Source: Ochromonas danica (lineage: Eukaryota > Sar > Chrysophyceae > Chromulinales > Chromulinaceae). From it: a stretch of DNA of 64,000 bases. Each line of letters begins with the position of its first letter. Within the stretch, counting starts at the first letter, position 1. The stretch covers positions 248,001-312,000 of the forward strand of contig VKHL01000002.1 of NCBI GenBank assembly GCA_015146655.1, written 5' to 3'. This document shows, piece by piece, positions 3,822 to 59,300 of the stretch. The position numbers were made by a program, and so were the translations under genes. The notes beneath the pieces were generated by a model that ran no database searches, was not told the origin of the DNA, and worked only from the letters and a program-made list of their open reading frames with translations.

Positions 3822-5008
3822 ATGAGATTCTCCCATGTTACTCTAGTATCAACTCTTATTTTCTTTCTCTTATTTTCTTTCTCTTATATTCCTATATCTT
3901 GTTCTCCCTTTACAACTTCCACTACTCCAGTAGATATTCGAATAGGAGAAGAACAAGGTCTGACTGCACAAAGTTCCATCTCAGCTGACACTTTACAGAA
4001 AATCCTTGCAGGTGTACAGAATGGTAATCGAGAGAATATCTACTTCTATGGTCTCTTGAAGCTCTATGGTATTAGTGTAGTGAAGGACACAGCTGGAGCA
4101 GCGGAACAGTTTCTGCGTGCCAGCCAATTAGGGCACAAGGAAGCCACCACAGCCTATGGGGTCATTCGCTTCTTAGGTGGAGATGGGAAGAAGGAAGACT
4201 ATACTACAGCTATTCGATTCTTTCGAGAAGGAGTCTCTCTAGGTGATATGGTGAGTTGTTACCTCTTCTTAGTGTTTCCTACTGCTCACCCCGATACTCA
4301 CTGATACTAACTGTCTCTCATGCTTTGCTTTCCTTTGCTTTGGCCAAAATCAACGTTGGCATTGATGTCTGATCAGAATGCTCATTGGCTTCTTGGCAAG
4401 TAAGCAAAGCATATTTTGTCTTTTAGGTCTTTATATTGTGTGGATCATAATGGTGCTAATTATTGAGCAGAATGCTTCTGGAGGGTAAGGGCGTTAGCTC
4501 TCCTGCTCACACTGAGGCTGCTTTACTCTTACGCAAAGCTTCTGAAGAAGGAAATGTACCTCAAGCTCATCATTTACTTGGTGTAATGTATGAATATGGT
4601 CTTGGTGTGATGCAGAACTTTCAGACCGCTGGGAAATATTATCATCGAGGTGCAGAACAACATTATGTAGAGTCCATGTACCACTTAGCTTTGATGTACG
4701 CCTATGGTAGAGGCTATCAGCAAGATTTGGTCAAGGCCAGATCATTGCTTGATGCAGCGGCTAGAAGCAACCATGCACCTTCGATGTACTACATTGGTAT
4801 CTTCAAAACCTACGGCTATGGGGGCTTGATGGTGAATTATGAACAAGCTATCAATTGGTTTGAACGAGCTGCTTCGATGGGTGATCCTCGCATTAGCGAC
4901 AAAGCGGCAAGGAATGCTCAAGAATTGAAAGAAAGTCTGACCAATGCACTCGAACGGAATGAAGACATGTTGAATGCTTTCCAAGCTCGTGGCGGACAAT
5001 CGGATTGA
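3822..5008 (+). CDS. Secreted/ER Sel1-repeat protein
   Basis: Exons 3822-4250, 4377-4399 and 4471-5008 join in frame to 329 residues. The ATG at 3822 opens a clear signal peptide (MRFSHVTLVSTLIFFLLFSF, then SYIPISCS). The rest is a run of Sel1-like TPR repeats: 'A-x-x-x-Y-G-x-x-R-F-L-G-G-D-G', 'HHLLGVMYEYGLGV', 'YHLALMYAYGRGY' and 'YYIGIFKTYGYGG', ending in a short charged helix. Sel1 repeats form alpha solenoids for protein binding; the ER-luminal members SEL1L/Hrd3 serve ER-associated degradation. There is no C-terminal membrane anchor, so it is either luminal or exported. The middle exon is only 23 nt and codes for N-A-H-W-L-L-G plus two bases of a Lys codon. Without it the repeat would be broken, which supports the microexon. 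Confidence 0.8.
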
Positions 5009-35310: not shown

Positions 35311-38300
35311 TTAAAACTTTGCCACTGCCGTGACTCTTGAGACAACGACAAGGCAGTTCGGCTCTTGGTAGAGACAATAACTTCCCGACCCCTGTGCATT
35401 GCGAGCCAATACTCGAATGTAGTACAAACGATCAGGAGTGAGATTGCCAATAGTATAGGTCAAAATAGAAGCTGGCACTGTGAATCTTCCGGAATCCAAA
35501 CCAGAGAAATCGATCAAGTTACTATAACTGATCTCATATTCAATTATAGCTGAACCACCATTCGACGCTGGAGGACCAGAAGAGACGGTGCTTGGGCAAA
35601 CGCCTGGATTGGTCGTTAAACCATAACAAGGTACGTTGTGCCATGGAATGGTTGGGGCCAACCAATTGACCACAAGTTCTCCACTAGACGATCCAGGAGA
35701 CGCCGAGATAGTTTGCGGGCGACCAGGGACTTGCAGTGCAGGCGAGGCGCTAATTGGTGTTGACAGAGCCGGAGTACCCAAACCTGCAGAGTTGATAGCA
35801 AAAACGCGCACATAATATACTTGTCCCTTAGTCAAATAAGTAATAGTGTAGGATCTGAACTTAGAAGCATCCCGATCAACATAGCCTTTATGTGGTTCAC
35901 TGGCCAGGGAAGTAAATTGAGGAGAAATGTCCCACTCAATACGGTATTTCGTTATAACATCCCCACCATTGTCCACAGGATCCGAGAATGCAACAGTGAG
36001 CATTGAATCAGAAGTTACCAGAAGCCTCACTCCAGTGGGAGCAGAGCTCGCGCCGTATGGATTGAGAGCAGGAGGGACGCTTAAAGCTGGATTTCCACAC
36101 CCAACACTATTACAGGCGCTGACACGGACGTAATAGAATACACCAGTCGTCAGGCCAGAAATCACTCGAGAGAAAGGTGCCCCTCCTGCAAGGTAACTCA
36201 CGTTCAGAGAGAGAGCATTGTAGAAGTTGCTGTAAGTAGAATATTCCACCATATATGAAGTGACTGTATCTCCACCATCATCGACAGGGTTATTGAAGCG
36301 CACACGAAGCTCAGTTTCTGAGACAACAGAGAGTACAACTGAAGTAGGAGGACCAGGAACAACGTGAGGCTTTTGACCAGAGGGAGCGACTTGTGGAAGT
36401 GAGTATCCCACTTCATTAAAAGCAAATACTCGAGCATAGTATATTTGTCCAATGGCCAAGGCTTGATTGGAGGGAACTTCAAAAGTACCTGCACAACTGG
36501 TGTAGGTACTTCCTGATACCAATTGCTTGACTGTCACATTCGCATCAGCACCAGATAAGGTCTGGAGAGTGCTGCTTCCAGCAGTCACTGACATACCAAA
36601 GTTTAATGTGCCCTGTTGAGAGTTATCTAGGAAGGTAACTCTCCAAATCACCCCATTGGTCTCATCTGGACCATCACGATCAACTTTAACACCCATTGGT
36701 AATGCATTCGCGATTGTTTGAAATTTGCTCTGCATCGAGCCGGCAATCTCTCTGCGAGTCAACGGACATAAACTAACATCTGCTACACAAGCCACCCGCG
36801 AGCTGGAGGGATCACCTCTTCCTCCAATCGTACGATATAGATTAGATGATTGACTCGAAGACCTTTTACCAACTTCCAAAGAAAGCACTGTGTTCAAAGT
36901 TATATTTGTCCCATTGACCGAAAGAACTCTAAATGGCTGCATTGGAAGGAGCTGATAATCGAAATTGACGCGGTCACCAGGGAATACAAGTTCCTCCGCA
37001 TTGACAGAGGCAATGACATAGTTGAGATTATGATGGACAGTCACAGAAAGACCTGACACGGTGGATGTTATTCCGACTTCATCGCTCAACATCGCGGTTG
37101 CGTCATAAGGAATATAGTCCGTGACATAAGTAGAGTACCCATTCTTGAAAGTCAAAGTGAAGTAGCCAGATACAATAGGATCGTTAATGAATCCAGTGGT
37201 TTGGACTTCAAAAACAGAATGGATGTTGGAAGACGGGCATGGAATAGAGGTTACGATAGGTTGTTGGAATGCCATGGTTACATCCAGCTCAACACGATAG
37301 CTCAAAATAGAGGCTCCACCATCGGATGAAGGTGCACTATAGGTGATATCAAGAGTGCTTGCAGATCCTGGATGAACGCTGAGCTGCACATTTTGAGGAG
37401 GTTGAGGGACTTGCTTCGCAGGAGAAGCAGTGAGAGAGCTGGGCTTTTGAAGAGGACCAACACCATAGCTATTAATAGCAGAGACAGCTACATAGTAAGT
37501 ATTGCCAGGAACCAAATTGGGTATAGTATACGATCGAATATCTGGACCAACTGTTTGTGATTGGTAGTTCAAGGGCTGCTCTCCAGGATAGGCATAACTA
37601 GCCTTTGATCCAGCTGAGAGAGAATTATTGCCATCATAGACACTGACAAGCACACTAGATTTGTTTGTATAGATCAGGCTTGTGTCGATCTGCAGTGCGG
37701 GCTGATTACCAATAGACTCAGAGAATGTAATTGTCCATTCAAACCCTGCATAATTGATGCCAGATGCTGTGGTTAGTACAGTAGCACGAGACACTGTCAT
37801 CAATCTAATTGTGGGAAGCTGAAGTAGCGCTTGCTCCATTTCTGAACCAGAACAAGAGACCTCAAGATAAGTGGTCAAAGTTTCGGATCCATTAAAAGAC
37901 AAACGGAACCATCCACCAAGATCTTGAGGAGAAGTTGCACCAGCTGCAAGGATGGAGATAATCTGAATCTCAGGGCTTCCTCCCGGCCGCACACCGCTGA
38001 CTAGTTCATAAACAGCAACAGTTTCTCCGTCCGTACTAGTGGCCATAGAGTTGGCGACTAACGGAACTTGATCACCATAATTAGTTGACGACAAGAAAGT
38101 AATTGTCCACTGGTAACCCTTGCGAGGAATAATTGATTTAGTGACATTAACATCTCCAATGACGAAGTCGGAGGTATAGTTGCTCAATACACCTGCGTAG
38201 CCAAGGTCCATCAACTCCGATCTGACATTGAAAGCATTCGTGCTATAATAAAGCAATGATGTAGTTTCTTTCACATTCGGCTGAGGACCAAATGATAAAG

Positions 38301-41300
38301 TAAATTTGCCATTGCTAATATAGGGGAAACTTGTGGAGATAAACTGAACAACTTGAACTTCTGGTATTGCTCCCCCTTCCCACCATTCAACCAAATAACC
38401 TGTGATAGCAGAGCCGCCATTAGATGAAGGCATAGACCAAGACACAGTTGAAGTGGTGATGGGAGTGTCTTGTGACGTGGAAGTTGAAAGGCTGACAGAT
38501 GTTGGCTGTGAAGGCTTTCCAGCAGGAACAATTCCGCTGGTGATGTTTGAATAAGGTCCGACACCCTTGTTATTCTTAGCTGCAACAGCTACCCAATAAG
38601 TGACTCCACTGGTAAGCCCTGTGATTTCGTAGACAAGAACACCAGTACTCTGTTGCAGGACCGGTAGGGCAGAAACAGATACGTTGATGCTGTTGATCAC
38701 TGATGACCCACTAACTACTTCGGATGAAGCCCATTCTATCAAATATTGAGTTATATTCAAACCACCAGTGCTTGTTGGTGGAGATATGAGAATTTGCAAG
38801 GAGGATGGGCCAGATACAAGCGCAGTGACTAAAACAGGAGCAGAAGGCACCTGATATGAAGTCACCGCGGAAACCACTGCCGACCAATTGGTGCCCTCAT
38901 CGTCTGAGGACGAAGAGCTGATAACCAAAAAGGAAATAGAATTACGAGCTGCAACTCGAATATAATATCGAGTATTGATTGTTAGTCGACTAATTATGTA
39001 TTTATAGGGAGGCCTGACATCCAATATACTCCCCTGCAATTCGCATTGACCATAACCAGAAGTTGCACACGTTGCAGTTCCATTAAGAACATTCTCGAAG
39101 TCGGGATCACTGTCCCATTGCAGAGTATATTGAGTGATATCCGCCGTAATTCCGGAAGGAATTGAGAAGAAAACCTCCAGCTGTGTATCCGATAAAGTTA
39201 TCACACTGACATCATTGGGAGCATTGGGAATTTGCCTAGGTGTGCCAGTGGTAACACTGGACGATCCAGCCCCGTTGCTGTTGTGAGCATAAACTCTCAA
39301 AGTGTACGTCGTGGACACAGATAGACCATCAACATAAGCACAACGATCACAATCAGCCATGCGAACTGACACAGCCGAATCAGGAGGGTTAAGATTATGT
39401 TCAGGCCCGCCAAGTGGCAAGACCTTGCCTCCATCAACATCCAAGAAAGTCACTGTCCACTCGTAGCCTCTAGCCCAACGGGAGTAAGAAGCACTCATAT
39501 CCTCCACACCAGTATAATATGAAATAATCGACGAATCATTAACCAAGGCAAGAGGCACGACACTATTTGAACCATTATAGGATTGTCGCACCCGATACCA
39601 CAAACCTCCCACCAGAATCAGGTCACCAGGGGGCAACTCAGAGAAATTGCACGTGTCACTACAAACTAGATATTCACTTCCAGGAATAGCTCTAACATGC
39701 CCCTGCATTTTGACAGCGCTGAACGAACGAGAGACTGAAACAGTGTGGATTGGCAATAATGCTTCCAACGCATCCCTCATGTCTACAGCAGAACTGTGAG
39801 CTGAGATGGGACCCGAAGTAACATTGCCATAGGTCAGTTGAAAGAAGCCCGAGGCATCTTCGCCAATATAGAAATATTCATCCAATAAAGAAAGAGCTGC
39901 AACACGCACGATCTGAACAGTGTAATCGGCCGTAATATTCAAGACTTGACTAACAGATCCATATGTCTTTCCAATCTCAACAAAGAAATAGTCCACAGGT
40001 GCGCCACAAACACCAGTAGCGACTTGAGAGTAACTGCAGTGTAGGGGAGCGCTGAATGACAAAGATAGGGATGTCCCAGAAGCCCGAGCTCCCTTTACGA
40101 CTTCATCTACAAACACCACGGCATTGACTCCACCCAAAGTACCTGCATATTCTGGAACAATGAGTGGTACAGCACCATAAGTTCCAGTAAAGCTTATCAT
40201 ATATACGGCACCACCTTCCGTCGTAGGATCTGACTTAGTAACAGAAATCAGCCCTGCAATTGCCTGCAAGGCCGCCGCAAAAGCTGAAGCTGAAGCATTG
40301 TAAGCAATAGGCACAGTTGTTTTACCATTGTATTGCAGAATATATGAACCACTCAGATAGTTGCCATTCTGCAAAGTGCTGCCATAAAGCTGGGCACCAG
40401 CTCCACTCAGAAGTGAAACCAATTGAAGAGGAGGGACATCGCCCTGAACAGTTAGCCAGGTAATAGTCCACACGAAGCCGCCCTGACTGCTTGGTCCAGT
40501 TCTTGAAACAGAGATGTTCCCAAACCCATCAAGAAATTGCAATTCGGCGGCCATAGCATCAGCAGAGACGTCATAAGGTAACAAATTGCTATTTTCTACA
40601 TAGAAATACCCGCCTAAATGATTGCCATCAATGACCGTGCCAGAAGAGCATATTCCGTGATTAATGGTAAACACAGGATCTTTTCCGCAAACCAATTGCA
40701 CTACATTACCCATACTGACATCATAAACAATGGTCCACATGAATCCATTGCGGTCGTCTGAGATTGATTTTCTAACATCATACAATTCAACGTATGAAGG
40801 AAGCAAAGAAAAGGCGTGTACAAAAGTGGACACGCTTGTGTTGGCCGCCTGCAGGTTGAAGCCACGACGCCTAATGATAGATACATTCATGTAAGCTTCA
40901 GCAGGAGTGAAGTATTGTTTCGTTCCATCTTGAAAGTAAGCAAACTGTTGGCAGGTGTTAACATCATACTCCGCAATTAAAGTGGCTAGCTGGACAGAAG
41001 AACTCGAATCTCTTTGATGCAAACCATTTCCTGTGAAGAAAATAGTGTACGTGAAGCCAAAGTTACTAGAAGCATCTCCTGCCCCAGCCCTTTCAACATA
41101 GACTGCGTCTATTTTGTCTAAAGCTTCCATAGCATTTTGCACATCAGTAGCCGTTGCATTCCAAGGAATACAATCAGTCACTGCACCGTCAAAGCTCAAT
41201 GTGTACGAGCCTTCAATAAACTGCTGGCTTGCTCGAATCGAAAATGACTGTATCTCCGTATCGATTCCTACAGCAGGGTAAGGGTTTACTGTGCTGACCA

Positions 41301-44300
41301 AGAACTCCACTCCAGACGGTAAGGAAGAAGCACAACTTGTAGACGACAAACCATAAGAAACGGTCAGAGGCCGGACAACTCCAGCAACCATGTTACCAAC
41401 AAAAGTAATGCTCCATTTGTAACCATAATAATCGGTGAAGCCGCCATATCCGGATCGGATTACATCTACTGAGTCAACGTATGGAAGACTTTCCAGCGCA
41501 TTCTTCACATCATCGGCCGATGCCGTAAAGCTCAAACAAGCAGTTGTAGCAGAGAGCAAGAACGAACCCCCTGTAAAGTTATAATGGGAATAAGTTAGAC
41601 TGAAATACCCATTTAATTCATTGGAGCCTGATGTTCTGAGCTCAACCGTTTGGACTTCAGGGAATCGCAAAGCAAAGTTGCCCATAACGGTGGACCCTTC
41701 TGGAGCAGTGAGAACTACGTTTTGAACTTCAGCATACTCTGCTGCCGATGTCGAAATGGTCTGAATCTCACTCAAATGTGAAGCTCCAACCGACACTGAT
41801 TGAACGGCTGTTGTGTTTAAAACAGCCTCAGCACTGAAATAATCTAGCTCAGGAGGAACAGTAGAAGGAACATTGGAGTTAATCATAGCTGCAGTACTGA
41901 AAGTGTAATTGCTGTAGCCATGAAGTGGACCACGAGTGTATGCTGCTATTCGACCAAAGTACTCGATTCCAGTATGCAAATCATTCAGTACGTAACTAAG
42001 AGGATGAATCCCCGTAACCACATCATCATAGACGGTGAGATCAGTATTAGGAGTCAAATCCGAGCCAGCAGATGCAATCATCGCAGGAGCATTACCAAGA
42101 TAACTAGAGAAAGTTACAGCCCACAAATTCCCATTTATCTTGAAAATCGGCACTCTCTCAACCTTGCTTGCAGCTAACAGAGCAGCGAAAGTAGGAGACG
42201 ATGCCAAGCCAAGAGGAATTTGAATACTAGTTAGAGGCGTGTGAATGGAAGACGACGCCACTCGAGTGATTGACACGTTTCCGTTGAAATGGGAACATAC
42301 CCTATTACTTGTATTCAAACTGAGAGAAAAAGTGTATAATCCGTCAAAAAAGTGCTCATTCTCCATGTAGATATGGTAAACATAACTACCAGGATAGAGG
42401 ACACCGTCAACACTTCTGACAACACTGACACAGACATCTGAAGTTGAACAAAAGCCCGAAAAGGCCTCATTCAGACCACTTTCGACAGAAAAATCTTCCG
42501 CTATCGACGACAGGCAAACAGAGGAGACTGAATGACTTGTTCCGTTGAAAGACCAGCTAGCTTCAAGGCTATAATTATATAAACCAGAAATGTTTCCAAC
42601 AATCAAACGGAAAACATCAATGGACTGGTCTTGAACGGAAAACACTGGAGGAACTTTATAAATAGCAACAGATTCGGTAGTAGTTCCCATATATCCACTT
42701 TGCAAGTTGACTTGGTTGATTTCGGGTGTACCGCTTCTCCTGGTAAAGGCAGTTATATTGGTTCCTTGTGGCAATGAATCGGCTGTTCTAATTCCGACGA
42801 AAGACCACGAATCATCAAAAATATGACCTACAGATTCCCCAAACTTCACAAATACCCCTTCGCCAAGATAATAAATACTTCCAGCAACAATTGTGAAGGG
42901 TCCATGCACCTCACTGCTACCATTGCTCCAGATGAATTTGTCACCAAGTGAAGAAGTTTCATTTATAGTAATTGTGAACACAGTATCAACCGATCCATTA
43001 AACTTTCCAAACACATTCAAGTCGTCTTGAGAATGATTGGTAGAAGGAGATTGATAAACGGGATCCATTATGCTTCCATCCACAGCCACTTGCATAGCTG
43101 GCACATCATCATCAGAATCAGCAAATGAAATCAGGTATGTATATCCGAAATGATCTTCCTCACTACCCGAACCAAAACGTTCAACATTTGCAAGAGCATT
43201 CAGTCCATAGAAAATTGCTCCTTGAAGCACGGAAGGATCAACGCCCCATTCAAAACCGTCTGAACTAGTCGAAATAACAGTGGTACCCGCAGTCAGTTTC
43301 CAGTATGATTTACCACCTGCTTCAAACAGAGGATATTTCGAAGACAATTTTATTTCCTGAACTTCACTACTACCACCCCGTTGCAATCTCCTGGTACTTA
43401 AAGCATAGCGCATACCATCAAACTGACGGAACGAATTGCACGCGACAACTTCAATCATGTTCAATGCGCTTAACTGAACACCTGAAAAGAAGAGCTTATA
43501 CATGTAAGAATCCTCCCCAACAATGGATGTTTTGACTGAAAACTGTGGGATGGCAGCGTCAATGACGTAAACTTGTAGACGACTTGGAACTGGAGTAGTA
43601 CGAGGAAGAGGAAGGTCAACCGTGATGGTTGTTGCCGTGGTATCCATAACCAGGTATGTTCGGAATGGTTGATCGCTCGAAGGAAGCCGAACTCTATCAC
43701 CAGGACGAACATATCCATACGTAGTTTGTTGAACTCCATTCACGACACCAAGGGTCCAAACAGTTTGATTGACGGAAGAGTTATACTGAATGGCCACGGA
43801 AGACGTTATTGTTCCGTTTATGGCCCGACAACCACCGAGTGTGCTTTCTTCCACGATTTCAACGAAAGGAAGAGAATTTCCAAGAACTTGAGACCTGGTG
43901 TATCGAAGAGGAGGGCCCATAAAAACTAACGTGTAAGTATAACCATAGCCAGACGTGACACTTCCATCACCAATACGACTAACCACGACATGGCCATCAT
44001 CCAAAGATGAATAGATTCCATCACCGTTGAAATCGAACTGCAAGGAGTCGATAGCCGCTTCAAGATCATCCGCTGTCGCATGAAAAGGAATACAATTAGC
44101 CGTAATCCTTGAGTCTTGCTCGAACACCATTCTAAGCCGATAATATCCTCCAGAGTAAACAGGAACTGGCTGATCAGCAGTAACGGTCAAAGTCATCACT
44201 GTAGAGGTTGAATTTCCAGTGCCAAATCTAGCCACCTGAACAGAGTCACCATGGACCAAATTAACATCATAATATTCAGAATGCTGCACAGCAAACCCCA

Positions 44301-47300
44301 ATGCATCTCCTTCAACCACAATAGCCTTATTGGCGACAAGTTTCACGACTGTTAGCGGGGTATTTGGAGATAAAGAGAAGGTAATAGTGCTTCCCAACGC
44401 CAAAACCCCAAAGTACGAAGACTCTAGAGTCAACAGATAAGGAGAAGTGCTTGAATTGATCATTGCACGGAAAGGTAGGGGTTGACTTGAAAGAGCTGGC
44501 AACGCAGATAAAGCATTTGCAAGACTTTCGGCGTCAATTCCAAATGGGAAGCATGTGGTGTTACTAAATAATGTACTATTGAACGGAGACTGAACTTTTA
44601 GCTGGAACATTCCTCCATTGTCAACAAAACCATCATTAACATTCAATCTAACTTCCTGGATTTCAGTATAACCACCTTCCACCGCCGTAACGGAGGAAAC
44701 ATTACTTCCTGGAGCCAAACCAGGCACAGAAGAATTAGCTGGATTCGAATCAATACAGCCATTAGCCACTTCCAGATCATTGAGGTCACCCAACACCGAC
44801 GTGCCATAGAAGTAGAAAGAGTAGACGTATGAAAAGAGCGTCGGGTCTGAGCGTCGAGTAACGATAAGTTGATCACGGCCAATCAATGAATAACTTTCAA
44901 AGCTTGCTTGCAACTCCATTGCGGGTGTAATATCACCTCCAGCTGAGCGCCAGATACAAGAACTAACGATATCTTCGCGATTAAATCTGAGAATTAAGTA
45001 AAATCCACCGCAAGTTCCATAGTTGTCAGCACAAGATACCGAAATTGTTTTCACCTCTGCACCTGTCTTCATCACACCGTACGTGTCCGCACCCAATCTC
45101 AAGCTTTCGCCAGGCAACAACAGTTCACTTTCACTTGATTGACCAAGGAGGTACAAAAGCGGACTTCCAGACTCAACACTAGCCGCATTAAAGAAACTTG
45201 CACCATCCATGGAGGTTTGGGTATTGGGATCGCTTTCGTTACCACCACCAATTCGAATAAGATCACCTGAAGTCAATAATTCGCGAATATCTGGGGGATT
45301 AATCCCATTTGTACTAGCGGAATATTGAACTGTCAATGTTTGTGAATCTCTTGACGATGAAACATAAACTCCAGGGATTTGCTGCATCAATCGATAGCTG
45401 CCTTGAGTATCAACAGTACCAACTGACGGCAATGATTGTAACAAATATTTGACACCTAAAGCCTGTTGATCATATTTGATATTACAGGTATCAGTAGAAT
45501 TGAATGTAAGTCGGAAAGAACCATCAATTGGATTGCTGCCATCTTGATATGTGAGTGCTACCGCTTGAGCGTTGGTTCCAAACAAGCTAACCCCGGCTTC
45601 ATATCGAACACTCAGAGGATCAATATTACCCGAGCCAGGAGGAAATGAAAATCCATCGTAAGCTCCTGTATTTTTAAGGAAATAGACTCGCCATTCATAT
45701 CCACCAACGGTGCCGGGATCAACTTTGACACTGCCCCATCCGCCGGATTGCGGTGAAGGATACTCAAAACGATAAACATGGACTTTTCCAACGGTAGTAA
45801 ACTCTTCCAGCTTATGCTGCAATCTAATGTCTGATTCATCGCAAGACACATTTCGTGGTCCATATGGATTATTCAGGTCAACAGTAAACTGACCAGACAA
45901 ACCTTCAGATCCTTTGATCAATTCATACACCTCAGGTCGATAAACAACACCATCTGTTGCGGCGCCCTGGGTAACCATCAATAGTGGAATATCGCCTGCA
46001 CCAGGAGGAATTTCTCCCGGGTTGTATACAAATTGAATGCGATATTCAACAACACCGTATTTTCCAATCACCAATCGAGTAACGTTGACTTTTCTTGAGC
46101 TGATTGATTCCAAATAACTCTTAAGAGAATGACTTCCCTCAGCCGCCACATTCCACTTAAGGCTTGCAACACTTGGCGTGTCACCACTAACATAGAATGC
46201 AGTAAAGTTCCCTCTTTGCACAACCCCATTTTGGACACCAGCTTGGAGAGCTGTCATGCCATATATTGCTCCGCGCCTTACCACCTCCGTACTCACTGTC
46301 CATTGAGATAAGGTCACATTTGAGCATTTATGAACAGAAAGTTGGTGATGATATCCTTCATCGAAGAAATAAATTGTATAAACTTTCCCATTTCTTGCAT
46401 TCACAGTGTCAGTGCCTTCAGCAACAAGAACACCACGAGAACCATCGCGAGGGCTCAAGGCGCTGATGTTGGATTGCAATGCGATTTGTACGTAAGATGC
46501 AGAAGAATGAACGGGGATACAGTTGGTATGATTCTTCATCGTCGTGTTGTCATAATATTGAATCATGAAAGACTCCAAACCGAAATTACCATCATAATTG
46601 GGATTATCAATGTAAATTCTTTGAACTGATTTGGAACCAGGAGGTTCAGCGGTAGCAGGACTATCACCTGTAAGAATTGTGATCATGGAACAGTTATATA
46701 AACTTCTATTCATCGGTGATATACACTCGCCGGAAAGACTGCCCTTAACAAATCCAAGGGAAGGTACATTTCCAGGAGAATTACATAGGTTGTAGTAACT
46801 GTCACGTTGTTCACAATCATTTCCAAATTGACCAATGGAGGAACTTTTGTCCCGTAAGAAGGTAATGAACCACGTGTAACCTCCATTGTTAGGATCAACG
46901 GCCGAACGTTCCACATGAATATCACCCACATTGGCTAAAGCTTGCAATTTTTCTTGTAAAGAAGTTCCGTCACCGCCAGATTCGCTTGCATTCGCAAATG
47001 CATTGTGTATGATAATACCAGTTCTGAGAGAGGATCTCACATTGATTACCGCACTGTTGGTTGTGTCCAAAGTCAAATAGAAACCACCAGACAGGGGAGG
47101 TGTACCAGAGACAACTTCTTCAACAAGACATCCATCAGCAGGTAAAACACCGTTTGTGACTCCTAGAGAACCAGAAGAGCAAACAATCAATGGTTGATTA
47201 CCAACATTCTTACCCCAAGCCTTAGAATAGCCACTTGGCCACACATCAGCCCAACTTGTTGCAGAACCAATCCAGTTTCCATCGATATATGTATCATTCC

Positions 47301-50300
47301 TCGTGGTGGGATCCACCCACTTGTTTGAAGCAAAAGTAATAACCCAAACGTAACCAGCCACTTGGGTAGAAGGTGTTCGCATTGGTCCACTACGAGTAAC
47401 TTTCACCCTTGAAGGAGAAATGGACGGTAAGTCATTCAAGTATTGCTCAACGACCACTTCACTAGCATCGTAAGGAATAGCACCGGTCGCATAACCATTG
47501 AAAATAAGCTGGAATGTTCCTTGCAATTGCGCACCTTTAACGGCTTCTTCAATATCAATTCCAACATTAACAACGTACGTTCCAAGAACACACACAGATG
47601 AATCAACACATAATACACCAATGGCCCTGGAAGTGCTGGCAGTTGCAGTTGCGTAAAGAGCAGTTGTATCAGCAACCATCATTGGCATATCACCACCTAC
47701 TGACTCTCCAGTAAACTGAATGCTGTAGGTATAGCCCATAACATCGTTGGGCTCTGCAGATCTTGTCACATTCACTAAGCTTTGACCATCAAATAGCTCA
47801 ACAAATTTATTTTGCAGATCAGCAGCGCTATAGGCTTGTCCATTCACATTTGTAACGGGGATGAAGGCTGATGTTGAATTGAAGATGTTGCCAGTGGTAT
47901 CAACAACTGTTAAACCATAGGTTCCAGAAACCTGGTTGCCATCAACAGCCGTGCCCGGATCATCCATAGACAAAAGATGATGCTGTCCGCCTATTTCTAA
48001 AGTCACATTGGTAGTTGAAGTTCCATTCAATGAGATATTATAGTTCATAAGTGGCAGATCACCATTCCTCTCAACGAAAGTAATGGTCCATAGATATCCT
48101 CCACTCCAGCGAATTTGATTGCTGGGAGTATAAGCTACTCTGGAAACATCCACAGACCCGAAGAAAATCTGTGCGGATAGGAAAGTTGCCAAGCTATCTG
48201 CATCTATATTCCAGGGCACAGCCGACGCAGTGTAATTGTGAGGAACACCAACGTAAACATGAGGATATGACATTCCAAGACTTAAGGAGCCAGAAATTAG
48301 AGATCCAGCCCGTACTTCATGGACATTACATACAGCACCAGAAACAGAATTAGTGCCAGCCAGACTTGAAGTATCGCAAATCATCATGGGGACATCGCCG
48401 TTTTGCATGTGAAATGTAATGGACCAACGATAACCTACGTATGCTGTACTGGGAATGTAGAAACTTCGTGACACTTCAATAGAAAGAGGGTTTGTATTAA
48501 TAACATCAGATAAGGCCCGAAGCTTCGTTTTAATATCAAGAGAAACCATTTCAGGTGTGATGGCACTTGTTGTGTACTGTCTTGCATATCTACATGCTTC
48601 ACTGACACCCTGAGCATCTGTTGGATCCGAGTAGAATACACCAACTTCGGCATTAGCAACAAAAAGTGTATCCGAAACAGATCTTAAAGAAGAGCTGACA
48701 AAGACAGGAGATATCAAAAATGTAGACGCGCCAGTTTGCGAAACAATTTGATGATAGCTGTTTTTCAACCTGATAAACTGATAAAGAGAACCCGAGGGCA
48801 GTGTACCTGTGATTGTGTTTCCTATAGTACTTGAACTAGAAGAGCCCACAGAAACATTGACTGAGGTAGTCTTGCTTTCGCAAGTATATGTTAACGACAC
48901 ATATCCATCAGGTTGATTACCTTGAGTTGTAACAGTAGCAACACCTGTCTGAGTGACTAAACCCACATTATATGTTGTACCCGACGTAGTATAAGTTGAC
49001 TGCATTTGGGCACCACTGATGGAATAGGTCACATTGGTAAAGAGGATCTTGAGAGCGGGAATCTTCCCTCTAAGAGTATTTCCGACAAAGGTTATGTCGT
49101 AAGACATCATGTATGCACCTGTAGAGCCAGCCGACAAAGTCTCTGATGTTTTTGATACAGTAACACAATTACCTTGAGGATCCATCATGAATGATTGCGT
49201 GCCATCTCCAGTAATGTTGCACAGCTGATACTGTAAGGCTAACGCCGAGCTGCCGAATGGGATATAGTCAGTCAAGCACGTGGAAGACGAGCAAGCATAT
49301 CCAGTCATATTATAGTATTCTAAAGCTGCAACGCACCAGTTACTATCCGGAACAGAAGAATCTCTTCCACACTGATTAGGATCGAACTGCAGTCTATAAT
49401 AACCTTGGAAATGAGCTTCAATAGACGAGCAAGATGATCCAACAGTGCACCCAGTAGTATCAATATTGCTGACAATAACTCCAATATTTTGGACGGCATT
49501 TACTCGAGGAGAAATAACCTCAACAAGCTGAATTTCTGGCAAGTCTAGAGTGTGCGTCTGTACCAACTGTACCTCATTCACATCTGTACCAACGAGCTCA
49601 ATGGTTTGTATTTCATCTATATCTTGGGCATTCGTTGTTATACGCTGAACTTCATTAGTCACATCATCGCAAGTGGTGGTGACTGTTTGTATTTCATCCA
49701 AACCATTTACCTCCGTGCGCACAATCTGAACTTCATTGGATACCTCAGTTAGTACCCGCAAAGCCTGCACCTCCATAACAACTTGTTGCTCCACAGCCAC
49801 TGTTTGCACTTCTTTCACCATTGGTAAATCAATCACATCATACCCTGAGAAGTCTTCAGTCGTAGTATAATGAAGTCTATATTTTTCCAATGTGACACCC
49901 CCATCTCGCGATGGATAGTTCCAAGTGGCAAGCAACTGCGTTGCATTGATGGAGAGGAGTTGCAAGTTTGTCGGCGAAAGAGGCGGCTCATCTGAAGTGT
50001 AGATAGGATTTTGAGCATAACCAGGTGACCCCCCACCTTGGCCGTTAAAAGCAGTCACTCTGATATAATAAGGAACATTCGGACTGAGAACTAGCTGGCT
50101 CTTGCCAGTTATAATATTCCTGCCACCAATCTGATAACTTATAGCTGCAGGATCATACAAAGTAATCTGCTCCGCAGGTGTGCCGAAATCCGAGCGGCTA
50201 TCCCATTCGACGATGTAATGAGTTACAGGGGTTCCGCCATTGCCTCCATAAGCACAATCAACTGTATCTGGCGCAATCCAAGAAACAAGTATTCCTCTCT

Positions 50301-53300
50301 CATCTGTTGGTATCGCTTTAACAGACAATGGAGGGCCCGGTGGAAGAACTGAACCAGTAGTAGAAGAAGGGGTGGGATAAGCCGCCACAGACCAGTCAAA
50401 CCCATTATAGGCAGAAACACGAGCAAATCTGGGAATAGTCGACGAGGATGGGACGATATCAATTGTATAACAAAATACAGATTGTCCACTGGTCACAACG
50501 AGCTCACGTTTAGTACCAGAAACATTGACATTCTTGAAATCTGAGGAAATATCCCATTCAACCCTGTATTTTACGACTGGAGCCCCACCAGTAAAAGAAG
50601 GCTGATACCATACTAATTTCAATTGCGACATTGACAACGCAAAGAATGAAACATTTTTCGGTGAAGAAGGGGCAGTTTGGGGAGCAAGTTGAGCAGGGGA
50701 AGAGATTGAAGGATACGAAGACCCTGCGGAGTTCACAGCTCTCACTCTCACTTGATACGAACGCCCAGTTTGCAATCCAGAAATATTGTATGAAAGAGAA
50801 GAAGACGAAAGAGTAGCAATTGAATAATCATCAGGAAGTGCACCATGTGTAAGGACAGAAACTTGGGCTCGGGCAAATGGTCCACTGAGAGCGGCGTCAT
50901 TCACGGTCATGTCCTGAACATTCCCCATTTCAGATAAGAATGTTACCTGCCAATCAAAGCCGTAACCATTCCGGTATCTAACTACATCGACCTCCCCAAT
51001 AGTGTACAATCGCTCCAACATGGCCTTCATACCAAATGCAGATATGTCATGTTCAATTGGCGGCGTCGTTGCTCCATTGAAACTGACTCTAAACGTGCCA
51101 GATAAAGGTGCCACACCATTTCGAATCGTTGTGACCTTAACAATGGGATTCGTTCCGGCCCAATTATCAGACGAGCGAGCTGAGAGCTGAGGAACATCAC
51201 CAATCAAACCTGTAAATGTCACATCCCAAGAATAGCCATAAGACCACACATAGACATTGACATTTTTTGTAGTTACAATTCCGAATGCTTTGTCCAGCAC
51301 AATAGTGCTGGAATTAACGCTCTGAATTGTAAATTGCTGATTAGAGATCCAGATTATACTTCCAACCATGAGGCTATTAGCCGAGCCGCTGGCAATGGTC
51401 ACAAAATTATATGCAGCTGAACCATTAACAGTAAGTCCAGGAACAACAATACGCGATAATTGCCGCGAAACATCAACAAACCCAACATTGGGCAAACGAG
51501 CAAGATGTTGTGCCACCGAGTCCTCTCCATCAGCATTTGCATTCCACCGGATATTTTCAGTTGATAGATTCTGAAATTGTAGTTTGAAATAGCCAGCAAG
51601 GTTATTCTCGTCTGACTCAACTGTAACCCGTTGAATTTCAGATAAAGATGAAGTAGAAGAAGTGGTAATAGTTTGCACTTCAGGAATGGGCGGGCTGCTA
51701 TAAGATTCTATCGAAAATGCTGTAATGGTCGGATCAATATCAATCTCCCAGGTTACCAAAAGAGATGTCGCAGAAGATACTGATAACACAACGTTTCTAG
51801 CAGGCAAAGGCTGCCCCACAGGAATAGCAGAGACCAAAGATGACTGCGGCGAGTATCCACGATTATTGTAAGCGGTCAATCGAACGTATTGTGGAATGTT
51901 CCTTGATAAACCGGAGAGTTCAAAATAAAGAGGATGTGTTCCTTTAACTAACTCGAACACGTCCACAGTAGCAGATGTTACCGGAGATAAATCGTTGCTT
52001 TCGACGATCAATGGTGGTAAATTACCTGCTCCCTGAACCACTTCTTTTCTCATGTTCGTGAAAGTGATAGTCCAGGCATACAGACGTTTCGAGCTTGACA
52101 GTATCTCTCTCTTGACCTTTACAGTGAAGATAGTGGGTAATTGCTCTAACTTCTGTTTGAAAGAAATGGCTGATTCATTGAAGAAGATAGCAGGAGTTTT
52201 ATATCCCATCATACTCAGCACGAACGATCCACTGACAGATGAAAGCGCTTGCGTTCGAACAGTTTGAACTTCATTGGTATATTGGCCAGGAACAATATCA
52301 GCAAAACCTTTCACAAATTCGTGAACTTCAATCTGAGCGTCATCACCCAGCAACATAGAACCATCAGGAATCATCAAGCCAATATCGCCTTTGTAGCCTG
52401 AGAAGGTAACTTGCCACTTGAATCCGCGCATCCAAGCCTGACGAGACACAACCACAGGATGAATTGCCACAGTTTGAATCCCCAGTAACTCGTTGATTAC
52501 AGCTTGTAAATCAAAAGCAGCAATATCATGCGCTAGAGGAGCCGAAGTACGTCCGCCCAGAGTTAATGAAAATGTGCCCCCTCTCAACTTTACGTTATCA
52601 CCCGAACGATAGCTTGTGGTGAGTACCTGAATTTCAGGTATATTTGCAATCTCAATACCGCGATAACTAGGTGAAGAAGGATCGAGCTCAGGAGATTGCG
52701 CCGTTTCAAGAAGATAGGTTACTATAGGCAACCCCCCATCGTTGATAGGAGGAAGATACGATAGAGACAATGAACTTTCTGAGTGATACTGGCCAAGAAC
52801 AACACTCTGAGGCAGACCGGCAATTGCACCATATTCCGGCGTAGTTACAACAATCGCATTCGATGTTTCCGAGATACCAACGTTATTGAAGCTAATCATG
52901 CTCAGAGCATAGCTTTGGTTATTGTTCAAAGCAGTAATCCTACTAGAGAAGTCTGAGGTCAACTGTGCTTCGCGGACGGTATCTTGCACAACTGAGAGAT
53001 CAACTTCATCATAGAACAAGACAGTCAGATCAGGGATAGCTTCGTATCCATAAGTCCCCCAGAATGTCACCGTGTACAAATAGCCAAATGACCAAAATTC
53101 CGAAGACCCATCACCATTGCGTTCAACTGTAACCCTGTCAAGACTGAGCAGATTCTCAAGAGCAGTTTTCCAATCCTCTGCCATCGCACCATAAGTAAAA
53201 TTACCCACGAACTCATTCCCCAAAAATAAGCTGTACTTTGGAGTTGACGCTTCAACAGTTTGTGCAATATCTAATGACTCCGCACGGAATGCCACTGTTT

Positions 53301-56300
53301 GAACCTCAGCCAGCCCACCCAATCGGAATGTACCGGGCTTAACACCATCTTCACGATGAGTGAACAAAACAACATCAGTGCCCTTCCAATCATCTTCCAC
53401 AGTGACCCTTAACGTCCCAAAAGATCCGAGGTACTCTTTAAAAATAATAGCTCTCTCACGACCAAAACCATTCTTGAAGGCTGTGGCGGCCTCAAATCCA
53501 TTCATCAACAACCTTGCATCTACCGAATAACGAGAAGAACCAACAATTCCAGAATCGGCCACTATAGCTAGCTGATAGTCTCCAATCCAAACATAATCCC
53601 CGACAGAGATATCGAAGGCAACTGTCGTATATAAAACTGCAGATGCTTCAAAGATGGCCATGGACGGATAACCATTTTCAACAGACGTTCCTATATATGA
53701 AGAGGCGAGAACATTGCAGTACACAGTAGGATAACCATCGCAAGGAGCGGAAGATACAACAGTATACGAAACACCGCTGATGTAAATCGAACCGGAAGTT
53801 GAAAGAATAGATGTGGTTACCGTTCGATTGGCACCATAAGTAGCGTTGATAATCGTGCTGTACGGAATAATCGACACTACTCCAGGCAGCGGGACTTTGG
53901 AGGGACGGTAAGCACCAACTGAAATATTCAGACTTGCAGTGGTAGAAGCAAACGATGAGTTCATATAAATAAATGTTGCACTGTCAGTGGTATTCATATC
54001 GATGATAAATCCGTTGTATTGCAGACCAGATATACCAATAAAATCACCAACTGCGATGGCGGAAGTGAGATTGCCATCTATCCTCAAACTGCTTGTAGAA
54101 GACCCCACAACAGGGACAGTTGCATTGAACTCTAACGAAGAGTATACCTCATGATCCCGCAATCCAAGAGCAACAACTTTTCCAATCCGTGTCAAGTTAT
54201 GCAATGCATTAATGACTTTGCCATCAGTTGCATCATGCGATAAAGGGATTGTAGATTCATCTTCAAATCTAATAACGAAATGTCCCGAAATGTCATTAAG
54301 GGCAGCAGTTGTTGTAAGATTAAAAACTGGGTACACGCCGACTCCTGCATCACTTCCTATGACAAACTGATCGTCCACTTGCAGAGTTTCCACGTCTCCC
54401 AAATCAACAGGGAAAGTGATTACCCACGCATAACCTTCAAAATAACCATCACGATGAATAAATCGAGTCACAGACACCGGCGCATTTATCAAATTGCTTA
54501 TAGCTTGCTCCACAAGAAACGCAGAAGCATTCACACTGATGGCAGTGGAGCGAACACCCTCATAGTAGACATAAAAGTATCCATCCAAACTGCTCCTGCT
54601 CTCGGCAACGACGGCTTGAACTTCTGTGATGCCATCAATACATGCAGCCTGATCATTAATAGAGACGATGGAGATGACTGCATTTGCATCGGAAGTTGGA
54701 GTACACTGTCTAGGATACAAGGATACGTCCCAAGATTGATGACCATTATCAATATCGCTTAAGCGAAGAATAGGCCATTGCAAGGTCTGGTACACTCCCT
54801 CAAAGAACACGTGGTAATCGCGGAAGACAACATTATCAACTGACCTAGTATGGATTTGAACGAAAACTGTATTTGTATTATTCAGTGACTCCAATGTCCA
54901 ACGCAATTCGTCTGCGGTGGCTAAAAATGAGATGCAAGACGTGGATTCCCCATCCAAAAACAACCGATAATATGCAGTGCTATAGTCTACACCAACGGTC
55001 ATTGGTATAGAGACGACTTGATGACTTCCATACTGACCGATTCTGATCTTGCTGCAACTTGAGTACATCCATTCTCCATTGTAATTCGCAGGAGAAGGAT
55101 TAACAATCGGATTATCGATATTAACAGCAATCCTTTCAGTTAACGATTCAGATGACAGTTGGCTGACATCTATGTGAACCGCACCAAGAGATAAAGGGTC
55201 TACACCAGCATATCCCTGAACAATATATTCATACCCATATGAAGTTGACAACACATTTCTTATAACGTGAACCTTTTGAACTGAATATAACGACTCGAAT
55301 GCAGTTTCAACCGTTTCAGCATCAGCAGCCCAAGGAAGAAGAGTAGTGCGACTCGTATGGTAAATAATTCGCCAATATCCGCAAGTATCGTTACCTGCCA
55401 AGTTCTCAATTCTAAATCGCAGCATGACATTTGCTTCATCAAAGCTAATCGAAAAGTTGGTGGTATATTGCACCATGATACGTTCAACATTCCCACCAGA
55501 AGTATCAGCTGGCAAGAAGAAACTCAACTCGGCTTGATTTTGAGACGTGGGAACAGCACTTGCCACAACTGGAGCTGCGGGCTTTCCTACAAGTTGGAAA
55601 TTCATAGGAACAACTCCTTCACCCATATTCTGCACATTCAGAGTGGAAACACCATCGCCCATTTCATTTGAAGCAAAGAGCTTGACACTGTAATTATGAC
55701 CGGCTTGAAGCTCTCCAATTGGCTGAACATGCGACAACGGCACACCTTTGACTTCTTCCACGACTGAATAGGACCAAACAGTGTAAAAACTTGATTGCAA
55801 GTTCGAATGAGGATAAGGATAAATGACCATATCTGGAATATCCCCATCTGCACTTAAGAAGGTAATCAACCATTTGTATCCGATAAAGTTGGCAGCAGAG
55901 TCGGTCAAAATTTGACGCTGCACAGCAACATTTCCAATCGTTGACAATGATTCCAATTTGTTCTTCAAATCAACTGCTGTTTCATCGACGCGTACAAACA
56001 CCGCACTGCCAGAGTTATTAAACTCAACAGAGAATCCTCCAAACAATAAGCCGGAGCTGTGATTGACTGATATCGACTGAACTTCTCTAATCAAAGTTGA
56101 AACGCTGGCGGAAGCAACAATATTATCAAAAGACGGTTGCACACCAGCTTGAACGATTGAGGAGGAAATATGATGGTCATTACCAACAGAAAATAAAATC
56201 TGCTTATCATTTGCAAGAACAAACGAACCAGTCGAGAAAGTGGGAACGACAGATAATGATACAACACTATCCTGCTTCAAAATTGAGATTTGAGAGGTGA

Positions 56301-59300
56301 AAGCCCATCGAGAGCTATTGGTGAGATATCTAAACATATAGGGACTGCCCAGTTTGCGATACAGACGTCTTCCAGCCACATAACTATCCGACACGTAGCG
56401 ACCATTCAAGTCTGATTCTGCAAGTCCAGAAACATCAATAGCTGTACTCACTACTGAACGAACGCTTAAGCAAGGCTCTGTCGACAAGCAAGCTGTCGAA
56501 GGACCATTCAGGGACGTAAACCTGACTTTCCAAACATACTCATCATACAATGTGGGCCCAAAACGTTCAATTTCAACCGACCCAATTTCTGGATGAGCTT
56601 GAAGAGCCGATTTCAATTCATAGGTCTGAACATCATATGGAACAATTAGATCCTTTTGGCGATATATTTGAATCGTATAATTGCTATCAATGGCAACCGT
56701 TTCATTGAAGGTCAGGATAGTGCCAGTAACGGTCGCAACATGAAGAACCTGTTTCTCTGCAACATTGCATGATCCCTTAGACCCGCGCGCAATCATCAAG
56801 AGATCCCCAACAGCGACTTCCAATGTCAAATCTACATTTACAGTGATACTACCATTGATATGAAGATAACCGGCACATAGAAGAGTTTCCTGCACAAAGA
56901 TCGTTTCGCTTGAAATTGGATGAACATTGTATGGGAAAAAAGTTGCCGAAGCGCCATCTACTTCCTCAATGCATAAAATCTCGTCACCAATCATAATTTC
57001 AGATCCTGGAGCTAGCATATGAGAAATGGATTCTGAGGCGGCCAACACGCGCTGACCAGCCACAACTGATCCATAGAGAGGGTTCATGCTATTTTCACCA
57101 AATACCATCTTAACAAAATTCCCTTTAAAGCCATATCTTATATCAAAGGCACCAGATATTGCCGATTTTGACGATGTCGAAACTGAATAAATCTCATCGA
57201 CATCAGATTGAAGCCCATCAACAGCGGTAGAAAATTGGATGGTGGCATTATTGTGGTTCTCACACCACGAATCCAAACGCAACCCAACTGTATTCCCATA
57301 CGAACTATCAAAAATAGCATCAAATACCTGCGTACTAGGCGACGAGGACATTGTCGATAACTGGACCTGAACCAAATCAAAGGAGGGCAACTCCTGCAGT
57401 AAATATGAAAATGTAAGTGCATTCACAGAGAGTGGAATACAACGAGTGACACCGAGTCCATCAGAAACCTTAAACGATCCTGTAAACTGTGCAGAGACAT
57501 CAGAGATGGTGATTCTAATAATTTTGTTCTGACCCTCGGCTAAACTCAACGAGTAGGAAAGAAGCGGTAAACCATTTGAACCTTCTGGTCGTACCATAGG
57601 ACCAATCCAATCAAGAGAAACGGTACTGCTATTCAATACCGTAAGAAGGGAAGTTCCCGGCTGTACTGGTGTGGAGGCCGAAAACGAAGAACTAGGATGC
57701 GAGGGATAATCCAAATAGCGATATTCTGAGCAAACGGTATCGTTTACGAACACATAGCACCTTCTCGATCGAATGAAGTAAGACTGTCCAGGAACTAAAT
57801 GATCAATAACCAAAGGCGAGGAGCAGTTGCCACTGAAAGTAATGCTTCGTAGTACTTCAGTTTGATTTGGAGAACATGGAGAAGATCCACAACTCGAAAA
57901 GAAAGACGCCGTCGTGTCAATATCTAACACGATGAACGTATTACTTGCAACCGATGAAGAACAGCTTGCATCCAACAAAACTTGGAGGTCTGTGGCTGTA
58001 GAACGAGTGGTGTTTACCACATCAGCAGGATTAGGCCATAAATCGAGCCCATATGGCCAATAAGGATATGCATTGGGAAATGCAAAAGATGAACTTCCCA
58101 CACTATTCACTGCTCCTACTCGCACATAAAACCCACTATTCACAGAATTTGGAATATCGCCACCGGCAAAACTAACAGAATATTGTGCCACACCGCGAAC
58201 AAACTGTTCGCGTCCTTTTCTCACCTCGGTCATCCTGCCTGGGCTAACAGATAAATTTGGAATATCTCCAAGAGAACTGTAGAACTGCAATTCGAACACA
58301 GAAGCTACACAACCACAGTGACCTGACCCAATACTCGTCACACCAACATAACCCAGCTCTAAAGAAAGCAATGCAGTTGCCAATTCAGCAACAGATGGAT
58401 TGGGAGAAATCGACACATTTACTGAGCCGAGACCAAGCGTGGTGGTCGCACCATCACATATACAAAGATGTTGAATCTCAACAACAGAATGAGCAAACAC
58501 GGTAGTCAGACCATCCGAATTGCAGCCGATGGTGGCTGAGTGATTGACAGGGCCACATGATTGCAAATAATCTCCATACGCATTAAGACGATGTCCAAAT
58601 CGAGAAGAATATGCACTGAGATACTCATCAGTCTGCTCTCCCGGCCATACAACGTCAACAAAGGTGATCATCCACGTGTATCCTCTATCATCACCACAAT
58701 TGTTCATTCCTTTCTCTTTGGAGCAAATAAGATCACGTTTCACATCTACAGTTTTGATTGTTGATAATTGTTCCAAAGCCAGTTTCATGCCATGAGCACT
58801 AATATTATAGTCAAGCTCTTCAGTACGTTGGTTCATGAAAGAAAGAACAAATGTTCCGCCAGGAGTATAATTAGCCGGAGACATAACGGAGACGACTTGC
58901 ACATCTGCGCGTAAGGACGAATCTGTGGACAGAATAGTCTTTCCTATTAATGGGGTCGAACCAGAACCCGAATCAAATTCGATTGTTTTATCTATTTGGA
59001 CCATGAATTCTGATACTGGCTGCCCTCCATCAAAATTGGGTGCGTTGAATTCAACTGTGAATCCACCATCGAACAAGGGATAAATTCGAACCGAGCGCGG
59101 TGAATTAGGTGTTTGGTCGGAAGGCTGTTTACTGACAGGAGACGACAGCAGAGCTGGGCCAATACCATACTTGTTAATAGCCGAGATGGAGAAGAAGTAA
59201 TTCACGCCAGATAGAAGATTATCAATCACATATTCACCTACAGGATAGCTGGAAGCCGCTCCGCCAACACGCGCAATCATGTTAACATCATTGACGTACA

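What the first reader, a model, noticed from the sequence alone, without database searches (positions are those of the whole stretch)
37455..38525. EVQ modules are nested inside FN3 domains, not placed between them
Repeatedly, FN3 strands A-C end at Y-x-V-E-W-D, then one or more EVQ modules follow, and only afterwards do the missing strands E-G (L-x-x-G-x-x-Y-Y-V-R-V-x-A-x-N) appear. I saw this at several places (e.g. 37455-38525; the FN3 ending YYARVFAFNEVGYS; the FN3 ending FYVRVGAVNSVGSS; the one ending YQVRVRAVNSAGSS), while other FN3 domains have no insert. A fixed insertion point in one loop, used again and again, would be an unusual way to build a giant protein: side branches on a string of FN3 beads.
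Basis: partly seen in the sequence, partly recalled or inferred. Interest (0 to 1): 0.87.

Follow-up and report, generated by a model that had tools for sequence, protein, structure and literature searches.

The report
Modules looped inside split FN3 domains
In a giant protein, probably from a silica-using alga, many fibronectin-type beads are cut open at one place and hold strings of a second, phage-like module as loops; the parts are known, but using this trick again and again in one protein is unusual.

Summary
One minus-strand frame (35311-63999, at least 9,562 aa) holds 9 intact FN3 domains and at least 11, perhaps 13, split between strands C and E, which then lie 117-2,623 aa apart. Half-domains alternate N, C, N, C (22 of 24 steps, permutation p 6e-5). 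With the insert left out, 9 of 10 tested splits give one continuous Pfam fn3 match, 7 at about the curated cut-off or above. AlphaFold2 gives strand C as a strand in the given unit; without the C-half that strand is lost, and FN3 proteins leave the Foldseek top hits. The two halves most likely form one domain; no contact map could be inspected.

Corrections: the inserts seem to use two neighbouring loops (C-C' and C'-E); one firm insert has no EVQ module; 6 of 47 EVQ stretches lie between a C-half and the next N-half. Some EVQ modules are themselves interrupted, so nesting can be three deep.

The EVQ module is not new: it matches phage tail proteins (Bxb1 gp23) and giant bacterial ORFs. Mechanical or adhesive function is inference.

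The parts
35311..63999 (-). giant FN3/EVQ open reading frame, 9562 aa, 5' end beyond the window, about 1.03 MDa in the window
38380..38514 (-). given unit: FN3 N-half (strands A-C), aa 8496-8540
   Evidence: HMM 2-41, E 1.7e-8
37993..38361 (-). given unit: EVQ module 1, aa 8547-8669
   Evidence: EVQ HMM 1-104 of 105 (this module was one of the 9 seeds)
37636..37971 (-). given unit: EVQ module 2, aa 8677-8788
   Evidence: EVQ HMM 1-101 of 105 (seed)
37435..37563 (-). given unit: FN3 C-half (C', E-G), aa 8813-8855
   Evidence: HMM 56-96, E 2.5e-8; AF2 strands 324-328, 334-337, 346-354
62254..62946 (-). split FN3, aa 352-582, insert with one EVQ module
61648..62184 (-). split FN3, aa 606-784, insert without recognised EVQ module
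60751..61587 (-). split FN3, aa 805-1083; its EVQ module 860-1037 has a long internal insert holding a 60-aa element (897-956)
59134..60720 (-). split FN3, aa 1094-1622 (N-half weak, E 0.079); 240 aa precede the first EVQ stretch
58075..59109 (-). split FN3, aa 1631-1975; the spliced test gave no Pfam fn3 match
55630..57636 (-). possible split FN3, aa 2122-2790, read by eye
   Evidence: C-half only at E 0.18; N-half not found by HMM
52852..55581 (-). split FN3, aa 2807-3716, C-to-E distance 838 aa with 5 EVQ stretches
   Evidence: C-half weak, E 0.083; not in the Pfam test
51829..52818 (-). split FN3, aa 3728-4057, two EVQ modules
   Evidence: 21.0 bits, below cut-off
50692..51798 (-). split FN3, aa 4068-4436; first EVQ module (4121-4295) interrupted by a 60-aa element (4198-4251): three nested levels
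41899..49986 (-). split FN3, aa 4672-7367, C-to-E distance 2623 aa with 15 EVQ stretches and nine 13-aa EVQ micro-repeats
39256..40080 (-). possible split FN3, aa 7974-8248
   Evidence: N-half E 0.067, C-half E 4e-4
36385..37410 (-). split FN3, aa 8864-9205; EVQ module parts 8931-8970 and 9079-9164 flank a 60-aa element (8993-9056)
36832..37023 (-). 60-aa L..GD.I element inside an EVQ module inside an FN3
   Evidence: picked by eye as a seed; the HMM recovers it by construction
36064..36360 (-). example of an intact FN3 without insert, aa 9214-9312 (8 others: aa 85, 255, 4443, 4553, 8257, 8384, 9318, 9425)

Best explanation
The protein is a chain of about 20 FN3 domains. In at least 11 of them the stretch between strand C and strand E carries an insert, which in 10 of 11 contains EVQ modules (about 105 aa each, related to phage tail modules), some themselves interrupted by a further short element. 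The two FN3 halves pair across the insert into one domain, so every insert is a closed loop hung on its FN3 (order and complementarity shown by sequence; pairing supported by prediction). Inferred from here on: the chain is secreted, the FN3 string is the load-bearing spine because strands A and G are its ends, and the looped modules are display or binding modules that stay out of the load path until their host FN3 opens, when the whole insert becomes hidden length. The confidence below is for the nested fold; I give the mechanical part about 0.2.
For: Complementary N- and C-halves in order: 11 firm pairs, 22 of 24 alternations, p 6e-5, no intact FN3 within an insert at E<0.1. Strand C to E distance is 20-36 aa in the 9 intact copies and 117-2623 aa in the 11 split ones. 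With the insert left out, 9 of 10 give one continuous fn3 match across the joint and 7 of 10 are at about the 25-bit cut-off or above.

AF2 of the given unit: N-half blocks at pLDDT 80-95; four of six C-half blocks 87-94; strand C = residues 45-52. Without the C-half, residues 34-60 hold no strand. Foldseek: 12 of 14 PDB hits at E<=1e-3 are FN3-bearing structures for the full unit, 0 of 2 for the deletion, and no FN3 adhesion protein or titin among the 50 listed.

EVQ identity: Bxb1 gp23 E 8e-25, phrog_10909 E 1.6e-13, bacterial and viral loci. Secretion hint: 129 N-glycosylation sequons against 94 (sd 8.6) shuffled.
Against: pTM is only 0.45 and mean pLDDT 74, for the best of five models. No coordinates or PAE were given, so contacts between the halves are inferred from DSSP and the control. 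The control alignment had fewer rows (20 against 30), its five models scattered more (74.5 to 49.0), and strand-C pLDDT fell only from 94 to 86. Foldseek's sequential alignment cannot show the assembly itself. In the splice test one of ten (aa 1631) has no Pfam match, two stay below the cut-off and one is borderline at 25.0; no mismatched-half control was run, and a profile score cannot tell which halves belong together. Seven of the 9 intact FN3s are the HMM's seeds. Six EVQ stretches sit outside the C-E site. The N-terminus, any signal peptide and any anchor are outside the window or not seen. Function has no direct evidence.
Confidence: 0.9

Rival explanations
1. The halves are separate mini-domains or FN3 relics, and the EVQ modules simply stand between them.
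For: Several halves score weakly (E 0.01-0.08 at aa 1053, 1094, 3678, 4068). Six EVQ stretches (aa 7424-7971) do lie between a C-half and the next N-half.
Against: N-then-C order and complementary ends; strand C is lost when the C-half is removed; FN3 matches return when the insert is left out.
Confidence: 0.05
2. The C-half of one FN3 pairs with the N-half that follows it, or with another chain (domain swap), so that the modules lie between permuted domains.
For: C-half and next N-half are only about 6-10 aa apart, and the same strands are present.
Against: Within a unit the model gives both halves high pLDDT. A short G-to-A link could hardly bridge the two poles of one FN3 (recalled geometry, not tested). 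Intact FN3s in the same chain use the normal order. A competition model was designed but not run, because MAFFT placed nearly all C-rows on one copy.
Confidence: 0.04
3. The inserts are removed from the product (introns or self-splicing elements), so the mature FN3s are ordinary.
For: With the insert left out most of the ten tested FN3s look normal.
Against: Inserts are open and in frame over up to 2623 aa and contain conserved protein modules homologous to phage and bacterial domains.
Confidence: 0.01

Closest known systems
Insulin receptor FnIII-2 with its insert domain
   Same: An FN3 carrying a large insert in a multi-FN3 ectodomain (PMC2577065, passages seen); that the insert lies in the C-C' loop is recalled
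   Different: One FN3, one insert, reported there as not crystallised and presumably disordered; here at least 11 FN3s, 10 of them with folded modules as insert
Mycobacteriophage Bxb1 gp23 tail tip cage (9d93) and phrog_10909 major tail protein
   Same: The EVQ module itself, including the EVQ motif: profile E 8e-25, three adjoining stretches in gp23; Foldseek E 7e-6
   Different: In gp23 the modules follow one another in sequence; no split FN3 was seen in that match
Giant EVQ-bearing ORFs of Planctomycetota, e.g. a Gemmataceae contig, 6151 aa
   Same: Many EVQ modules in a very large protein (17 in one ORF)
   Different: No whole or half FN3 found with window-derived HMMs in 159 EVQ ORFs, nor by Pfam in the 5 ORFs scanned, one of them also at full length
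Titin, contactin, fibronectin FN3 strings
   Same: Tandem FN3 spine
   Different: No such repeated inserts (recalled)
Domain insertions in ECOD (PMC13114784, start of abstract and passages)
   Same: A1-B-A2 and recursive A1-B1-C-B2-A2 nesting are established patterns
   Different: There the inserted domain is smaller than its host in 77% of events and sites are evenly spread over hosts; here the insert as a whole exceeds the roughly 90-aa host in 10 of 11 (aa 606 is about equal) and all 11 fall between strands C and E
Diatom adhesive-trail giants CaTrailin4 and Ca5609
   Same: Size class about 0.9 to over 1 MDa, called modular (PMC11420354, passages)

Membership tests
FN3 domain (PF00041) | one continuous profile match | tested here: met
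   9 of 10 spliced splits match, 7 of 10 at about 25 bits or more (one exactly 25.0); aa 1631 none, aa 1094 and 3728 below cut-off; aa 2807 not tested
FN3 domain (PF00041) | strands A-G pair into one sandwich across the insert | tested here: inconclusive
   AF2 strands and deletion control support it; no coordinates or PAE to inspect
Phage tail EVQ module (Bxb1 gp23 type) | significant sequence profile match | tested here: met
   E 8e-25 to 9d93_Ma; E 1.6e-13 to phrog_10909
Phage tail EVQ module (Bxb1 gp23 type) | same fold | tested here: met
   Foldseek best hits 9d93_Md/Mc, E 7e-6 and 1.5e-5, also for the deletion model; TM-scores are low (0.25-0.29 of the query) as the models are multi-domain
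FN3 with C-C' loop insert (insulin receptor kind) | insert between strand C and C' | tested here: inconclusive
   Fits aa 352, 4068, 8496; aa 2807, 3728, 4672, 7974, 8864 fit C'-E better; 805 and 1631 are in between
Diatom adhesive modular proteins | secreted into adhesive mucilage, sawtooth force curve | not testable with these tools
   only size class and a neighbouring silicon-transporter match

The most novel reading that the evidence does not exclude
The split FN3s are molecular clasps: a eukaryotic FN3 spine whose beads each lock a loop of phage- or bacteria-derived modules out of the load path, nested up to three levels, giving a giant adhesive or matrix polymer with programmed hidden length that is released when single FN3s open.
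Probability: 0.2. Interest if true: 0.82.

Novelty: new variant of a known kind. Interest (0 to 1): 0.62.

Why it matters
It shows that one small domain can host, at one region of its fold, inserts mostly larger than itself, many times in the same chain, against the usual size rule for domain insertion. It also joins a eukaryotic FN3 string to a module family otherwise seen here in phage tails and planctomycete giants. Standard annotation hides this: Pfam reports FN3 matches and nothing for the module. If the clasp idea holds, it offers a concrete, testable protein design for the modular, sawtooth-producing adhesive proteins reported in diatoms.

Tried and rejected
Foldseek cannot bridge the insert, so it could not show the reassembled FN3 directly; the VIA-align library was not on the machine. 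A competition model (orphan C-half next to an N-half) was designed and dropped because MAFFT put nearly all C-rows on one copy; the second job went to the deletion control.

No relatives of the whole unit were found in phages, plasmids or viral contigs, nor of one module in genome contigs by single-protein query. One module gave only weak hits in Mycobacterium phage tail genes (E 0.02-0.5). A DNA pattern for the GYxWxITF core gave three viral loci which I judged chance matches (no EVQ hit in L001-L003).

A tree of 11 split (7974 in, 1631 and 2122 left out) and 9 intact FN3s does not cluster split from intact (6 changes, 6.9 in shuffles, 162 of 500 as low); branches are unresolved, so single versus repeated insertion stays open. 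DNA-level tandem repeats: none. The 60-aa element: best PDB match E 0.055, no further copy beyond my 11 hand-picked seeds at E<0.01, none in the held loci. Glycan binding by analogy with Douge Ig-like domains (PMC13033339, passages) was considered, but those domains were not shown to be the EVQ module, so I do not claim it. Paper searches returned listings that I did not read further. The paper on diatom trail proteins was not held; only its title, in a reference list, was seen.
Full report
WHERE IT IS. A single minus-strand frame runs from 63999 down to 35311 (9,562 aa, 5' end open at the window edge), about 1.03 MDa. No whole genome is held for the window. Neighbouring frames match a silicon transporter (PF03842, E 1e-20), CLU/eIF3, papain, and an ABC ATPase with an RLI-type Fer4 domain, so this looks like the nuclear genome of a silica-using eukaryote such as a diatom or chrysophyte. 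The organism is not established.

THE OBSERVATION. I built an FN3 HMM from 7 intact FN3 domains of the window. At E<0.1 it gives 34 hits: 9 intact (the 7 seeds and two more), 12 N-type (ending at profile position 41-72 of 100) and 13 C-type (starting at 28-66). The halves alternate in 22 of 24 steps; 6 of 100,000 shuffles do as well. An N is never followed by an intact domain before its C. One of the 12 N-type hits (aa 5791) is part of an EVQ module and I count it as false. Separately built N and C HMMs, iterated on this protein, agree. In the 9 intact copies 20-36 aa lie between the two half-matches; in the 11 split copies strand C and strand E are 117-2,623 aa apart. I count 11 firm split FN3s (aa 352, 606, 805, 1094, 1631, 2807, 3728, 4068, 4672, 8496, 8864) and two weaker ones (2122, read by eye; 7974, N-half E 0.067). 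One half in the pairs 805, 1094, 2807 and 4068 is weak (E 0.01-0.08).

WHAT FILLS THE SPLITS. An EVQ HMM started from 9 modules and iterated finds 47 stretches at E<=1, 45 of them at E<0.05. 35 lie in the 11 firm inserts, 6 in the two weak ones, and 6 (aa 7424-7971) between a C-half and the next N-half. The last may be a second insertion site in the A-B loop, since the following N-half starts at profile position 14 of its HMM, or may simply stand between domains. The insert at aa 606 has no EVQ stretch. The insert at 4672 has 15.

ONE LOOP OR TWO. For 10 inserts (9 firm and 7974; 606 and 1094 left out) I measured the residues left on the N-side after strand C and on the C-side before strand E. 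They are anticorrelated (Spearman -0.63, p 0.049). Short N-tails with longer C-leads (352, 4068, 8496) fit the C-C' loop; long N-tails with short C-leads (2807, 3728, 4672, 7974, 8864) fit the C'-E loop; 805 and 1631 are in between. In the model of 8496 an extra strand (324-328) precedes strand E, as expected if C' lies on the C-side. So the site is a narrow region, probably two loops. Boundaries were set partly by eye and the p-value is marginal.

DO THE HALVES FORM ONE FOLD. (a) Thirteen candidates were spliced and ten of the 11 firm ones scanned with Pfam. Nine give one continuous fn3 match across the joint; seven are at about the 25-bit cut-off or above (33.2, 25.0, 45, 47.4, 38.8, 52.3, 25.1), two are below (23.7, 21.0) and one (aa 1631) has none. 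No mismatched control was run; this shows complementarity, not partnership. (b) AlphaFold2 on aa 8490-8862 used 30 rows, of which only the target and one other unit hold both halves. Best of five models: mean pLDDT 74, pTM 0.45; N-half 10-residue blocks 80-95; C-half blocks 89, 94, 87, 88, 73, 56. Strand C spans residues 45-52. (c) The same target without the C-half (aa 8490-8795, 20 rows; five models 74.5 to 49.0): in the best model strand C disappears, residues 34-60 carry no strand, and A and B form two adjoining strands; block 41-50 falls from 94 to 86. (d) Foldseek against PDB: full unit, 14 hits at E<=1e-3, two Bxb1 tail tip and 12 FN3-bearing structures (contactin, titin, fibronectin, thick-filament chains); deletion, 2 hits, both Bxb1, and no FN3 adhesion protein or titin by title among the 50 listed of 1,239. 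Together these make pairing across the insert by far the best reading, though no contact map could be inspected.

A THIRD LEVEL. Some EVQ modules are themselves interrupted: the module HMM matches in two parts at aa 4121-4182/4245-4295, 8028-8100/8171-8214 and 8931-8970/9079-9164, and with a long internal insert at 860-1037. In these gaps lie copies of a 60-aa element with the motif L..GD.I (4198-4251, 8108-8166, 8993-9056, 897-956). I picked 11 such elements by eye; their HMM recovers those 11 by construction and finds no further one at E<0.01, so their kinship is suggested, not shown. PDB gives no significant match. So nesting is three deep at aa 805, 4068 and 8864, and probably at 7974.

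WHAT THE EVQ MODULE IS. Pfam and NCBIfam scans of the giant protein report no model for it. A profile of 24 window modules matches the Bxb1 tail tip cage protein gp23 (9d93) at E 8e-25 with three stretches that include the EVQ motif, and a major capsid protein (9d9w) at 3e-4. PHROGs gives a major tail protein family at 1.6e-13. A pattern for FTLTFNGQTT..I found 9 loci in bacterial genomes (7 Planctomycetota, 2 Solirubrobacter) and a similar one 117 stretches in viral contigs. 129 of the 133 loci held bear EVQ hits; the pattern selects for this. One Gemmataceae ORF of 6,151 aa has 17 EVQ hits. Structure search of the deletion model in viral predictions gives 7 hits at E<=1e-3, two of them named phage tail proteins. 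No FN3, half-FN3 or 60-aa element was found in 159 EVQ ORFs with window-derived HMMs, nor FN3 by Pfam in five ORFs, one of them also at full length; sensitivity is limited. A phage or bacterial origin of the module by transfer is plausible but not shown.

HOW IT MOST LIKELY WORKS. Shown: order, complementarity, module identity. Supported by prediction: pairing of the halves. Inferred: the protein is secreted (129 N-glycosylation sequons against 94, sd 8.6, in shuffles); force would run through strands A and G of the FN3 spine; looped inserts stay unloaded until their FN3 opens. Diatom mucilage gives sawtooth force curves attributed to modular proteins (PMC3821603 and PMC11966768, passages), and proteins of about 0.9 to over 1 MDa are reported in diatom adhesive trails (PMC11420354, passages). 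The size class fits; homology could not be tested, and the source is not proven to be a diatom.

NOVELTY. FN3 with an insert is known (insulin receptor FnIII-2, PMC2577065, passages), and nested insertion is known (PMC13114784, start of abstract and passages). That survey compares single inserted domains with hosts: inserts are smaller in 77% of events and positions are spread evenly. Here the insert as a whole is larger than the roughly 90-aa host in 10 of 11 (aa 606, net of a normal loop, is about equal), a single EVQ module (about 105 aa) is slightly larger than its host, and all 11 fall between strands C and E. The words fibronectin and FN3 do not occur in that paper's main text. Searches of the held papers with 'fibronectin type III' plus 'domain insertion' and 'nested', plus 'inserted' and 'discontinuous domain', or plus 'diatom' and 'giant protein' returned none; this covers open-licence papers only. 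I call it a new variant of a known kind.

Noticed in passing
window 49456-49812 (aa 4730-4848) and 41650-41808 (aa 7398-7450): Runs of about 13-aa repeats starting with an EVQ-like triplet (nine and four copies by the pattern), like the first strand of the EVQ module repeated alone; no tandem repeat at DNA level.
   Followed up: partly
window 39976-41847 (aa 7385-8008): A possible FN3 with two inserts: strand A at aa 7385-7397, six EVQ stretches, then strands B-C at 7974; read by eye.
   Followed up: partly
window 51247-51408, 36832-37023 and 9 others: A 60-aa element (L..GD.I) picked 11 times by eye, several in gaps of EVQ modules, without significant PDB match.
   Followed up: partly
window 735-1823 (-): Silicon transporter family match (PF03842), a hint that the host uses silica.
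   Followed up: no
L133:1266-19718: Gemmataceae ORF of 6151 aa with 17 EVQ hits plus PATR, MBG, Big_3 and FG-GAP matches.
   Followed up: partly
window 59238-60580 (aa 1141-1587): About 240 aa between strand C and the first EVQ stretch of this insert; it holds one 60-aa element (aa 1311-1373) and is otherwise without recognised domain.
   Followed up: no
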